From contig NZ_JTAN02000018.1 of the NCBI RefSeq assembly GCF_000949135.2, positions 248,001-312,000 on the forward strand: a DNA stretch of 64,000 nucleotides, in the 5' to 3' direction. The translations under genes were made by a program, and so were the position numbers. Origin of the DNA: Burkholderia sp. USMB20 (GTDB lineage: Bacteria > Pseudomonadota > Gammaproteobacteria > Burkholderiales > Burkholderiaceae). This document shows positions 44,399 to 51,435 of the stretch, piece by piece (the first letter of the stretch is position 1; every line of letters starts with the position of its first letter). The notes beneath the pieces were generated by a model. That model saw nothing but the letters and a program-made list of their open reading frames with translations. It had not been told where the DNA came from and made no database searches.

Positions 44399-45772
44399 TC
44401 AGTGCTGCTGCACGGCCGCCCCGCTCGCGCGCTCCTGTTCCGTGATCTCCGTGCGGCAATGGCCGATGATGTACAACGCACCGGCCGCGGCGAGCGCCGG
44501 CACCGCCAGCAGGCTGAACACGTCGCCGAAGTGCCAGCCGAGCCCCATCAGCAGCGCGCCGGCGAATGCGCCGGCCACGCCGCCGATTCGTCCGATGCCG
44601 AGCATCCATGCCACGCCCGTCGCGCGGCAGCGCGTCGGATACAGGCTCGCCGCATAGGCCGACATCGACGTCACCGCGCTCGTCACCACGGTACCGCACA
44701 GGAAAATCAGCGTGCCGAGCCACGCGGCATGCCCGATCGTGCGGCTCGCCACGAGCACCAGCAGCGCCGCCACGACATACGCGCAGACGATCGTCCGGTT
44801 CGGATTGAAGCGGTCCATCAGCCATCCGGCGCCGAGGTTGCCGAGCACGCCGCCGAGCGGGAACAGCGAGGTCATCAGCGCGCCGCCTTCGGCGCTGAAA
44901 CCGGCGTCGCGAAGCAGCGTCGGCATCCAGTTGGTCAGCAGGTAATAGATCAGCAGTCCCATGAAATAGGCCGCCCACAGCATCAGCGTGCGCGAACGGA
45001 ACTGCGCGGATACGACCTGCGCGAGCGCGGACGCCCCGCCCGTTTGCGCTCGCGCGCCGGCGGCCACGAACGTGCAGTCGTCGAAGCGCTCGCGCGGTGC
45101 GATCCGCGCGAGGATGCGCGCGATGCGCGCATGCGTGCCCGGTCGCGCCGCGAGATACTGCGCGGACTCGGGCAGCAGCATCACGAGCGCGACCGCCAGC
45201 GCGAGCGGCCCGATGCCGCCCGCGGTCAGCACGCTTTGCCAGCCGAACTGCGGAATCAGCCATGCGGACGTGACGCCTCCCACCGCAAGCCCGCACGAGA
45301 AACCGCAGAACATCGCGTTGACGGCCACACCGCGGATCCGGGCCGGCGCGTACTCCGACATCAGCGTGACGGCGTTCGGCATCGCCGCGCCCAGGCCGAG
45401 CCCGGTCAGGAAGCGGAATGCAGTCAACGCTTCGATCGACTGTGCATGCGCGGACACCATGCTCCATGCGCCGAAACACGCGACCGACAGCACGAGCACG
45501 GTCTTGCGGCCGAGCCGGTCCGCGCACGGGCCGGCGGCGAGTGCGCCGATGCCGAGCCCGGCCAGCGCCGCGCTCATCACCGGGCCGAGCGCGCTGCGCG
45601 CGATGCCCCAGTCGTGCGTGAGCGCGGGCGCGATGAAGCCGATCGCGGCCGTGTCGTAGCCGTCGGCGGCCACGACCAGGAAGCACAGGATCAGGATCAG
45701 CCACTGACAGGGGGAAAAGCGCTCGGCGTCGATGAACGACTGCACGTCGAGCGTACGCGGGGGGGTTTTCAT
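44399..45772 (-). CDS. AAHS-type MFS transporter (aromatic/organic acid:H+ symporter)
   Basis: A 457-residue carrier starting MKTPPRTLDVQSFIDAERFS, a typical AAHS opening. TM1 carries the family's Asp residues in VVAADGYDTAAIGFIAPAL, followed by the loop GPCADRLGRKTVLV; the second-half loop is GWLMDRFNPNRTI. PcaK and BenK are members, so an aromatic or cyclic carboxylate is the likely cargo. ATG 45772 follows AAGGAGA. It is the last gene of the minus-strand run SDR - FAD dehydrogenase - NIPSNAP - SDR remnant - carrier. The frame upstream of 45772 shows part of the decayed SDR gene. Confidence 0.88.
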   Translation of the reverse strand: MKTPPRTLDVQSFIDAERFSPCQWLILILCFLVVAADGYDTAAIGFIAPALTHDWGIARSALGPVMSAALAGLGIGALAAGPCADRLGRKTVLVLSVACFGAWSMVSAHAQSIEALTAFRFLTGLGLGAAMPNAVTLMSEYAPARIRGVAVNAMFCGFSCGLAVGGVTSAWLIPQFGWQSVLTAGGIGPLALAVALVMLLPESAQYLAARPGTHARIARILARIAPRERFDDCTFVAAGARAQTGGASALAQVVSAQFRSRTLMLWAAYFMGLLIYYLLTNWMPTLLRDAGFSAEGGALMTSLFPLGGVLGNLGAGWLMDRFNPNRTIVCAYVVAALLVLVASRTIGHAAWLGTLIFLCGTVVTSAVTSMSAYAASLYPTRCRATGVAWMLGIGRIGGVAGAFAGALLMGLGWHFGDVFSLLAVPALAAAGALYIIGHCRTEITEQERASGAAVQQH

Positions 45773-45840
45773 CGTATGTCTCCTTCGGTCCGGTCGCACG
45801 ACGGTGGCAATGCACCGCCCGCGCGCGGACCTGTTCATGG

Positions 45841-46008
45841 TCATGGTTTCGTCGTGAACCCGGCGCCCTTGCAGGCCGGCGAGCACGACGCGGCAGCCCG
45901 TGGCGACCAACCGCATCGCGCATGCCCGGCCGATGCCGTCCGCGCCGCCCGTGACGATCGCCACGCGAGCGGGGTGTCGTCCGTGTCGGGTCCGGGTTTC
46001 ATCGTCAT
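45841..46008 (-). pseudogene. decayed SDR gene (N-terminal fragment, frame broken)
   Basis: Between 45964 and about 45870 the minus strand encodes an SDR start: VAIVTGGADGIGRACAMRLV, then GCRVVLAG. The natural start is ATG 46008 (MTMKPGPDTDDTPLA), but it is out of frame with that segment. The ATG frame reaches a TGA at 45841-45843, ending GAGFTTKP, which resembles an SDR C-terminus. So the gene seems to have lost most of its middle and at least one base. About 200 codons are missing. It sits exactly between the NIPSNAP and carrier genes and was probably once an intact operon member. Confidence 0.65.
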
Positions 46009-46012
46009 CGGC

Positions 46013-49284: not shown

Positions 49285-50184
49285 ATGAGGAGAATCCCTA
49301 ACTACGATCTGTATGGCGAATCGGCGCGTCCGCCCTGGTACGACGCGTTCAACTTCGAATGGATACCGGAGCGCAGCCAGCCGAACGACTGGCATATCGC
49401 CGCGCACCGTCACGACGCGCTATTGCAGATTTTGTACATCCGCGGCGGGCAGGGGCATGTCGTGATCGAGAGCGGGAAGCACACGTTCGCACCGCCGTGC
49501 CTCGTGCTGCTGCCCGCGCAGACGGTCCATGCGTTCGAGTTCTCGCCGCAGATCGACGGCCTCGTGATCACGGTCGTGCAGCGCGCGCTCGAAACGCTGG
49601 TCAAGACCGCCGCGCCGGGCGCGCTGTCGATCCTGCAACGCGCGGCGGTGATTCCGGTCAGGGAGCCGGACGCGAGCGCGTCGATGCTGATGCCGCTGTT
49701 CGCATTGCTCGAACAGGAATTCCGCAGCACCTCACGCGGGCGCGGCGCGGCCGGGATGGCGTTGCTGGTGGCGTTGGTCGTGCATGTCGCGCGCCTGAGC
49801 GATCTCGCGGCCGCGCCGTCGCATGCCGGCACCGATCGGCGCGCCACGTTGCTGCGGCGGTTTCGCGAACTGATCGACACGCATTTTCGCGAGCATCGGC
49901 CGGTGGAATTCTATGCGGACCGGCTCGGCGTGACGGCTGCGCAGCTTGCGCGCGTGTGCCGGGAGGAGTTGGGCATCTCGACGACGGCGGTCGTCAACGC
50001 GCATCTGATTCGCGAAGCGCAGCGCGATCTGGTTTATTCGAATCTGAGCGTGAAGCAGATCGCGCACGAGATGGGGTTTGCGGACAGCGCATACTTCAGC
50101 CGCTATTTCCGCAAGCAGACCGGCCTGACGCCGGGCGAGTTCAGGGAAGCGGCCCATCGCGACCTGATGCCGGGCCGCTCGTGA
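49285..50184 (+). CDS. AraC family transcriptional regulator (PobC/PobR-like)
   Basis: A 299-residue regulator. The N-terminal cupin includes HIAAHRHDALLQILYIRGGQ and LVLLPAQTVHAFEF; the C-terminal double HTH includes YADRLGVTAAQLARVCREEL and FADSAYFSRYFRKQTGLTPG. The N-terminus IPNYDLYGES is like AraC activators of 4-hydroxybenzoate hydroxylase genes. ATG 49285 follows CAGGAGG. It is divergent from the SDR operon and convergent with pobA (79 bp between stops). It may respond to an aromatic or cyclic carboxylate and activate the SDR operon, pobA or both. Confidence 0.88.
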   Translation: MRRIPNYDLYGESARPPWYDAFNFEWIPERSQPNDWHIAAHRHDALLQILYIRGGQGHVVIESGKHTFAPPCLVLLPAQTVHAFEFSPQIDGLVITVVQRALETLVKTAAPGALSILQRAAVIPVREPDASASMLMPLFALLEQEFRSTSRGRGAAGMALLVALVVHVARLSDLAAAPSHAGTDRRATLLRRFRELIDTHFREHRPVEFYADRLGVTAAQLARVCREELGISTTAVVNAHLIREAQRDLVYSNLSVKQIAHEMGFADSAYFSRYFRKQTGLTPGEFREAAHRDLMPGRS

Positions 50185-50262
50185 ACGGGCGCGGTGCGGG
50201 CGATGCGCGCAATCGCGGCTCCCGAACGCCGCGACCGCAACAGCCGGCTCGATCGCCGCGCG

Positions 50263-51435
50263 TCAGACCGCGACCGCGCCGACGTAATTTTCGGCCATCG
50301 CCATCGCCGCCGGGCGCGACGTCGTCACGTGCTCGAGTTCGGCCACCTGCAAACGCTGCTCGAACGGCGACGCGTCGTCGAGACGATGCATCATGCGCGT
50401 CATCCAGTACGAGAAGTGTTCGGCGCGCCAGATCCGGCGCAGCGCGGTTTCGCTGTACGCGTCGAGCAGGTCGGTGCGCGCTTCGTCGTAGAACGCCTGC
50501 AGCGCGGACGTCAGGATGCGCACGTCCGACACCGCGAGGTTGAGGCCCTTCGCGCCGGTCGGCGGCACGATGTGCGCAGCGTCGCCGGCGAGGAACAGGC
50601 GGCCGTGCTGCATCGTGGTCGACACGAAGCTGCGCATGCCGACGATGTTCTTCTGGAAAATCCGCCCTTCCACGACCTGCCGGCCATCGGCGGAGTCGAC
50701 GCGCGCGTGCATCTCGGCCCAGATGCGATCGTCGGACCATTGGTCGACCGAATCCTTCGGGTCGCACTGGAAATACATGCGCTGCACGTTCGGCGAGCGC
50801 GTGCTGACGAGCGCGAAGCCGCGTTCGTGGCGCGCATAGATCAGCTCGTCCGACGACGGCGGCGCCTCGACGAGAATGCCGAACCAGCCGAACGGAAACA
50901 CGCGCTCGTAGTCCTGCCGCAAGGCGGCGGGGATCATCGTGCGCGACACGCCCTGCGAGCCGTCGCAGCCGATCACGAAGTCGCAGTCGAGCGTCTGTTC
51001 GACGCCGTCGTGCACGAAACGGATCGACGGCGCATCGGTCTCGATGCCGGCAATCGTCGTCCCGGACACGTTGAAGTACAGCGCGCCGCCGGCCGCCACG
51101 CGCGCGGCCACGAGATCCTTCAGCACCTCGTGCTGCGCATAGACGGTGATCGCCTTGCCGGTCAGTTCGGTCAAATCGATGCGGCGGCGCTTGCCTTCGA
51201 ATGCCAGTTCGAACCCGTGATGCAGCGCGCCTTCCGCCTTCATCCGGTCGCCGACGCCCGATTCGGTCAGCACGTCCATCGTGCCCTGTTCGAGCACGCC
51301 GGCGCGGATGGTGGATTCGATCTGTTCGCGGCTACGCGACTCGAGCACGACCGACTCGATACCGCGCAGATGAAGAAGATGGGAAAGCAGCAGGCCCGCG
51401 GGCCCAGCGCCGATGATGCCGACTTGCGTACGCAT
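50263..51435 (-). CDS. pobA: 4-hydroxybenzoate 3-monooxygenase
   Basis: A 390-residue class A flavoprotein that converts 4-hydroxybenzoate to protocatechuate with NADPH and O2. FAD sites are VGIIGAGPAGLLLSHLLHL, VIGCDGSQGVSRTMIP and LAGDAAHIVPPTGAKGLNLA. PobA-specific parts are ESTIRAGVLEQGTMDVL, FPFGWFGILVEAPPSS and YARHERGFALVSTRS; the last half ends AENYVGAV. Length matches the Pseudomonas enzyme (394). ATG 51435 follows GGAGACAT. It is convergent with an AraC gene. No pca genes are in the window, so protocatechuate is handled elsewhere. Confidence 0.96.
   Translation of the reverse strand: MRTQVGIIGAGPAGLLLSHLLHLRGIESVVLESRSREQIESTIRAGVLEQGTMDVLTESGVGDRMKAEGALHHGFELAFEGKRRRIDLTELTGKAITVYAQHEVLKDLVAARVAAGGALYFNVSGTTIAGIETDAPSIRFVHDGVEQTLDCDFVIGCDGSQGVSRTMIPAALRQDYERVFPFGWFGILVEAPPSSDELIYARHERGFALVSTRSPNVQRMYFQCDPKDSVDQWSDDRIWAEMHARVDSADGRQVVEGRIFQKNIVGMRSFVSTTMQHGRLFLAGDAAHIVPPTGAKGLNLAVSDVRILTSALQAFYDEARTDLLDAYSETALRRIWRAEHFSYWMTRMMHRLDDASPFEQRLQVAELEHVTTSRPAAMAMAENYVGAVAV

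What the first reader, a model, noticed from the sequence alone, without database searches (positions are those of the whole stretch)
44399..51435. Candidate alicyclic-acid aromatisation cluster feeding pobA
An SDR with an NAD-type site, a KstD-like flavoprotein desaturase, a NIPSNAP protein, an AAHS-type acid carrier and an AraC regulator stand beside 4-hydroxybenzoate hydroxylase. In known cyclohexanecarboxylate degradation, a 4-hydroxy acid is oxidised by an SDR, then desaturated by KstD-like flavoproteins to 4-hydroxybenzoate, which PobA converts to protocatechuate. The window has the matching enzyme classes in the right company. The initial hydroxylase is not here.
Basis: inference. Interest (0 to 1): 0.7.

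Follow-up and report, generated by a model that had tools for sequence, protein, structure and literature searches.

The report
Headless alicyclic-acid aromatisation operon beside pobA
A Burkholderia carries a small gene set that most likely turns hydroxylated cyclohexane acids into the aromatic compound 4-hydroxybenzoate and passes it to a neighbouring enzyme; related bacteria carry the same set next to what looks like the known first enzyme of that pathway.

Summary
The operon is SDR1, a KstD-like flavoprotein, NIPSNAP, a second-SDR remnant and a carrier; a divergent AraC gene and then pobA flank it. Support is comparative. (1) Of 200 genomes of the family, 25 hold a close flavoprotein orthologue and 10 of these have pobA within about 7 kb. 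In a wider set, 25 of 108 loci have it, with pobA of several subfamilies and placements. (2) In 7 sister loci the same set stands beside a ferredoxin-FAD-FCD-P450 fusion matching the described cyclohexanecarboxylate hydroxylase of Paraburkholderia terrae KU-64; the 7 of 200 genomes with this fusion are all among the 25. (3) There, hydroxylase and SDR1 promoters share an AraC-type operator in 6 of 7 loci; a related box occurs once in the window, at SDR1. Corrections: window-like genomes lack the hydroxylase; pobA has its own operator, so AraC probably does not control it directly; SDR2 is eroded differently in near relatives. Substrate and catalysis are inferred; a hydroaromatic-acid rival remains open.

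The parts
50263..51435 (-). pobA, 4-hydroxybenzoate 3-monooxygenase
   Evidence: PRK08243 615 bits over cut-off 351; TIGR02360 520.7 under 538.7; 97-98% identical and at the same place in L091-L093
51487..51503 (+). pobA operator-like site (TATC-N9-GATA), upstream of pobA
   Evidence: 2 matches in the window, 0.15 expected by shuffling; such sites upstream of 8 of 10 unlinked pobA genes
51518..51534 (+). second pobA operator-like site (TATC-N9-GATA)
49285..50184 (+). AraC-family regulator (HpaA-like), divergent from SDR1
   Evidence: Pfam HTH_18 5.2e-23, AraC_binding 1.2e-8; HpaA model 161.9 bits below cut-off 274.65
49234..49260 (-). AraC-type direct repeat TTGTCC-N15-TTGTCC between AraC and SDR1
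   Evidence: 1 match in 64 kb, 0 in 100 shuffles, no other even with one mismatch; TGTCC-N16-TGTCC at this place in 36 of 36 distinct loci that hold an AraC at least 60% identical (a few of these, such as L059 and L060, count the box of another AraC subtype)
48265..49104 (-). SDR1, candidate 4-hydroxycyclohexanecarboxylate dehydrogenase
   Evidence: adh_short_C2 2.8e-61; ChcB2 model 180 bits below cut-off 350
46369..48183 (-). KstD-like flavoprotein, candidate 4-oxocyclohexanecarboxylate desaturase
   Evidence: FAD_binding_2 9.5e-103; ChcC2 model 567.6 bits below cut-off 900; four residues aligned to KstD catalytic residues invariant in the 19-sequence alignment
46013..46354 (-). NIPSNAP-family protein
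   Evidence: Pfam NIPSNAP 2.3e-28; downstream of the flavoprotein in 94 of 105 distinct loci
45857..45967 (-). Remnant (first ~37 codons) of a second SDR gene
   Evidence: Pfam adh_short 8.7e-8; 69% identical over 36 aa to the start of the B. multivorans SDR2
44399..45772 (-). AAHS-family (PcaK-like) acid transporter
   Evidence: TIGR00895 398.5 bits, PcaK model 499 bits, both below cut-off

Best explanation
The operon is the lower half of an aerobic cyclohexanecarboxylate (Chc-type) aromatisation pathway. The transporter takes up a hydroxylated or oxidised cyclohexane acid. SDR1 oxidises the ring hydroxyl to a ketone, probably with NAD. The KstD-like flavoprotein removes hydrogen next to the ketone, probably twice, and the dienone tautomerises to 4-hydroxybenzoate, perhaps helped by NIPSNAP. 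PobA, the usual exit enzyme, makes protocatechuate. The AraC protein switches on the SDR1 operon from the TTGTCC direct repeat; pobA answers separately to its own regulator. Shown here: gene content, orthology, shared sequence motifs, co-occurrence. Inferred: substrate, order of steps, double desaturation by one enzyme, role of NIPSNAP, function of the motifs.
For: pobA lies within about 10 kb of the flavoprotein in 25 of 108 loci examined (25 of 105 after removing 3 duplicates), with identities to the window's pobA from 47 to 98% and at least five placements. The 25 genomes that hold an orthologue of 65% identity or more (of 200 sampled) hold 33 pobA copies in all, and 10 have one linked; random placement would give about 0.1 (my arithmetic: 20 kb of ~7 Mb). 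13 regions fetched round paralogous desaturases (L065-L077) show no pobA. The P450CHC-type fusion stands next to the operon in 7 loci (L035, L059-L063, L159), and the 7 of 200 genomes that hold it are all among the 25. Six of those 7 loci show TGTCC-N16-TGTCC at both the P450 and the SDR1 promoter; in L061 the P450 copy has one mismatch. The tree puts window and P450-linked flavoproteins in one supported clade (100/99) apart from two paralogue clades. The flavoprotein scores higher with the ChcC2 model (567.6 bits) than the five paralogues scanned (379-517). dN/dS of the kept operon genes, AraC and pobA is 0.05-0.21.
Against: No activity or growth is known for this operon. SDR1 and flavoprotein fall well below the NCBIfam cut-offs for ChcB2, ChcC1 and ChcC2. 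One desaturase only, where Sinomonas uses two (passage in PMC9795900). P450CHC is absent from window-like G050, G111, G194 and from G064; 18 of the 25 genomes with the orthologue lack it. 80 of 105 distinct loci show no pobA in the stretch held, though some stretches are short. 21 of 105 lie beside shikimate-dehydrogenase-like or paralogous desaturase genes, pointing to hydroaromatic acids. 29 of 71 loci with a divergent AraC lack the box as searched. Window and P450-linked flavoproteins are only 66-68% identical, and related strains are not independent.
Confidence: 0.72

Rival explanations
1. The operon degrades hydroaromatic acids of the quinate/shikimate type (for example reduced shikimates or dihydroxycyclohexane acids), oxidising and desaturating them to hydroxybenzoates; cyclohexanecarboxylate use is a later recruitment in the P450 clade.
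For: 21 of 105 distinct loci lie beside shikimate-dehydrogenase-like genes or the paralogous desaturases FADb/FADc, including B. multivorans and B. anthina, whose operon proteins are 87-90% identical to the window's; a Paracoccus locus adds QuiC-like, pca and shikimate dehydrogenase genes and a Rhizobium locus a shikimate dehydrogenase.
Against: Only 2 of those 21 also have pobA; the substrate of PobA bears a single ring hydroxyl, at C4; in the P450 clade the operon shares its box with a gene like the hydroxylase of an unsubstituted ring acid.
Confidence: 0.2
2. The flavoprotein is a steroid 1-dehydrogenase or general ketone dehydrogenase and its place beside pobA is chance.
For: Nearest solved structure by sequence is a 3-oxosteroid 1-dehydrogenase, 7p18; SDR1's many solved relatives include hydroxysteroid dehydrogenases, though none stands out.
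Against: Recurrent linkage to pobA of different subfamilies and to P450CHC; AAHS-type carrier and NIPSNAP are not steroid families (the last point is general knowledge).
Confidence: 0.05
3. The window's copy is a decaying, non-functional cluster, as the SDR2 remnant suggests.
For: SDR2 cut down to different pieces in the window, L090-L093 and L112.
Against: Remaining genes open with dN/dS 0.05-0.21; box kept.
Confidence: 0.05

Closest known systems
P450CHC, self-sufficient cyclohexanecarboxylate hydroxylase of Paraburkholderia terrae KU-64 (Yamamoto 2022; known here only from a passage in PMC9687028 and a reference in PMC9302171)
   Same: Seven sister loci hold a fusion of the same domain order (domains scanned in L035; the others 84-95% identical in each part) next to orthologues of SDR1, flavoprotein and NIPSNAP, with a shared box at both promoters in six
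   Different: The window-type operon lacks the hydroxylase and its AraC is another subtype (about 44% identical to that of the P450 clade); whether the KU-64 paper describes the SDR and desaturase could not be read
Sinomonas cyclohexanicum chc pathway (Yamamoto 2021, seen as described in PMC9795900)
   Same: Order of chemistry: 4-hydroxylation, oxidation to the 4-oxo acid, desaturation, 4-hydroxybenzoate, protocatechuate
   Different: One desaturase not two; scores below the ChcB2, ChcC1 and ChcC2 cut-offs; NIPSNAP present; whether Sinomonas has these last features was not tested
3-ketosteroid 1-dehydrogenases (PDB 7p18, 4c3x)
   Same: Sequence family and aligned active-site residues
   Different: Gene context is alicyclic/aromatic acid, not steroid

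Membership tests
Chc aromatisation pathway | P450 that hydroxylates cyclohexanecarboxylate at C4 | tested here: not met
   No hit in the window and no P450CHC-type gene in window-like genomes G050, G111, G194; another P450 elsewhere in the unheld genome is not excluded
Chc aromatisation pathway | 4-hydroxycyclohexanecarboxylate dehydrogenase (ChcB-type SDR) | tested here: inconclusive
   SDR1 180 bits against ChcB2 cut-off 350; whole SDR2 of P. aromaticivorans 229 bits
Chc aromatisation pathway | two KstD-like desaturases ChcC1 and ChcC2 | tested here: not met
   one flavoprotein in the cluster; 567.6 bits of 900 for ChcC2, 349 of 1000 for ChcC1
Chc aromatisation pathway | pobA at hand to take the product | tested here: met
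   pobA adjacent; recurrent linkage
Chc aromatisation pathway | growth on cyclohexanecarboxylate or its 4-oxygenated acids | not testable with these tools
   needs culture or assay
KstD-type FAD desaturase | catalytic Tyr119, Tyr318, Tyr487, Gly491 of Rhodococcus KstD1 (residues and numbers recalled) | tested here: met
   aligned residues Y125, Y374, Y545, G549 (alignment; 20-residue numbering offset is my reading), invariant in the 19-sequence alignment
4-hydroxybenzoate 3-monooxygenase (PobA) | family model score | tested here: met
   PRK08243 615 over 351, but TIGR02360 520.7 just under 538.7
AraC regulon of the operon | pobA shares the operon's box | tested here: not met
   box once in the window, at SDR1 only; pobA has TATC-N9-GATA sites instead

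The most novel reading that the evidence does not exclude
A widespread proteobacterial 'headless' aromatisation module in which one KstD-like flavoprotein, with a dedicated NIPSNAP partner, carries out both desaturations of a 4-oxo alicyclic acid: a single-flavoprotein aromatase that scavenges environmental alicyclic and hydroaromatic acids into 4-hydroxybenzoate, and has a P450 head only in one clade.
Probability: 0.35. Interest if true: 0.6.

Novelty: new variant of a known kind. Interest (0 to 1): 0.48.

Why it matters
It gives a testable gene set for aerobic alicyclic-acid breakdown, with orthologues in Burkholderia, Paraburkholderia, Caballeronia, Pseudomonas and Azotobacter among others, and proposes a function for flavoproteins whose only NCBIfam model over cut-off says 'FAD-dependent oxidoreductase'. 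It bears on naphthenic-acid clean-up and on the fate of non-aromatic ring acids in soil, and asks whether one flavoprotein can do what two do in Sinomonas.

Tried and rejected
Steroid degradation was put low because the partners point to aromatic acids, although the nearest solved structures are steroid enzymes. Direct AraC control of pobA was dropped as first choice after the operator comparison. CoA-dependent (ali/bad) breakdown: aliA, aliB and badI are annotated beside one relative, Salipiger; other aliB/badI hits near 30% identity look like general acyl-CoA enzymes and were not counted. A search for the ChcC1 model over 398 genomes of the phylum gave 5 with a match at E 1e-100 and none over cut-off, so no true Chc sequence was in hand for the tree. 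Searching the window's own genome failed because it is not held. One query (L108, 60 aa) was a wrong pick and is ignored. In one search protein alignment rows entered the nucleotide database by mistake; BLAST skipped their letters as invalid and no reported hit bears their names. Structure prediction was not run.

Duplicates L036/L130, L056/L125, L082/L104 were removed. The tree used 53 loci; it warns of long branches among its outgroup rows. In one search L159 gave two further box matches, in what looks like a simple repeat.
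Full report
What is there. The interval holds, on the minus strand, pobA, SDR1, a KstD-like flavoprotein, NIPSNAP, a short SDR remnant and an AAHS-type carrier, with an AraC gene on the plus strand between pobA and SDR1. AraC diverges from SDR1 with 180 bases between and converges with pobA. Codon-position composition supports these genes. The closest loci found are from Burkholderia ambifaria RZ2MS16 and three unnamed Burkholderia species (flavoprotein 91-94% identical), so the window is a Burkholderia, probably near the cepacia complex; its own assembly is not held.

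Gene order elsewhere. P. aromaticivorans BN5 carries AraC, SDR1, flavoprotein, NIPSNAP, a complete second SDR and the carrier. Judged by position across 105 distinct loci, SDR1 lies directly before the flavoprotein in 74, a divergent AraC in 71 and NIPSNAP after it in 94. SDR2 is whole in B. multivorans, B. anthina and several other loci, not detected in many, and reduced to different pieces in the window, L090, L091, L092, L093 and L112, so it was lost more than once or eroded differently after one loss. The kept genes show dN/dS of 0.05 to 0.21 against six relatives (three for pobA), which argues that the remaining operon is in use.

Link with pobA. Of 108 loci compared, 25 have pobA within about 10 kb (how the 108 were chosen is told under Tried and rejected). 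Placements differ: about 3.2 kb before the flavoprotein in 14 loci including the window (the named ones Burkholderia or Paraburkholderia), and elsewhere in C. necator N-1, C. metallidurans CH34, Haematobacter massiliensis, Derxia lacustris and others; identity of these pobA to the window's runs from 47 to 98%. In the 25 genomes with an orthologue of 65% identity or more among 200 sampled from the family, 33 pobA copies were found and 10 genomes have one linked; in G194 the operon and a 98% pobA both lie at contig ends, and it was not counted. Seven of the 10 (G050, G111, G066, G052, G035, G178, G170) hold a second, unlinked pobA of another subfamily. Thirteen regions fetched round paralogous desaturases showed none (L065-L077; L065 and L066 lie on contigs that also hold a main cluster).

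Link with the hydroxylase. In seven loci (L035, L059-L063, L159) a protein of about 930 residues stands on the far side of the AraC gene. In L035 it has Fer2, FAD-binding, NAD-binding, FCD and P450 domains and is annotated benC. A passage in PMC9687028 describes this order for the P450 that starts cyclohexanecarboxylate breakdown in P. terrae KU-64; the original paper is known to me only by that passage and its title (PMC9302171, whole text read). Five have it linked; in G072 and G140 the hydroxylase and its AraC lie apart, with the adjoining SDR1 broken or not found, while a window-type operon stands elsewhere in the genome. Window-like genomes G050, G111 and G194 have no such hydroxylase.

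Operators. TTGTCC-N15-TTGTCC occurs once in the window, at the SDR1 promoter, and never in 100 shuffles. It is at the same place in relatives with the same AraC type, and in L058-L060 it sits with the more similar (67-68%) AraC at the carrier gene instead. In the P450 clade a related box occurs at both the P450 and SDR1 promoters in six of seven loci (L061's P450 copy has one mismatch). Against this, 29 of 71 loci with a divergent AraC lack the box as searched. pobA has two TATC-N9-GATA sites; with a relaxed pattern at least one such site was found at 8 of 10 unlinked pobA genes inspected, the two of the 59% subfamily lacking it, and the linked 50% pobA of L060 lacks it too. So the window's pobA most likely answers to its own regulator, which was not identified.

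Chemistry. KstD1 residues Tyr119, Tyr318, Tyr487 and Gly491 (recalled) align with Y125, Y374, Y545 and G549, invariant in the 19-sequence alignment. The ChcC2 model gives 567.6 bits, below its 900 cut-off but above the 379-517 of five paralogues scanned; an orthologue of the P450 clade gives 540.6. The tree places window and P450-linked proteins in one clade (100/99) separate from the two paralogue clades, though in different parts of it. The introductions of two papers describe aromatisation of cyclohexanecarboxylate to 4-hydroxybenzoate, one of them with 4-hydroxylation, oxidation and two desaturations (passages in PMC9795900, and PMC5906575).

Judgement. It works like the lower half of the Chc pathway; it is not filed as a strict member because the hydroxylase and second desaturase were looked for and not found here. 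The main rival is a hydroaromatic substrate, since 21 of 105 loci lie beside shikimate-dehydrogenase-like or paralogous desaturase genes. Searches of the open library listed no paper that I recognised as describing this operon; the two Yamamoto papers did not appear in them, so the operon may be described there.

Noticed in passing
window 45857-45967 (-); L090-L093, L112: The second SDR gene of the operon is reduced to different fragments in close relatives, a case of repeated or divergent gene erosion inside a kept operon.
   Followed up: partly
L035 4249-7038 (+): A P450CHC-type fusion is annotated as benC in the plasmid record, apparently because only the reductase part was recognised: it passes the BenC model cut-off.
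   Followed up: yes
L185 (G072 C95), L186 (G140 C35): P450CHC-type gene and its AraC persist with boxes at both promoters although the adjoining SDR1 is broken or not found and no flavoprotein was found there.
   Followed up: partly
L002, L043, L094, L057, L064: Further KstD-like flavoproteins and a shikimate-dehydrogenase-like gene, possibly for hydroaromatic acids, adjoin the operon.
   Followed up: partly
window 17809-19632 (-): Flavin-dependent aromatic-ring hydroxylase with FAD_binding_3 and Rng_hyd_C domains.
   Followed up: no
window 52437-52542 (+): Short stretch that reads like the end of a LuxR-type helix-turn-helix domain, perhaps a gene remnant (my reading of a translation, not tested).
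   Followed up: no
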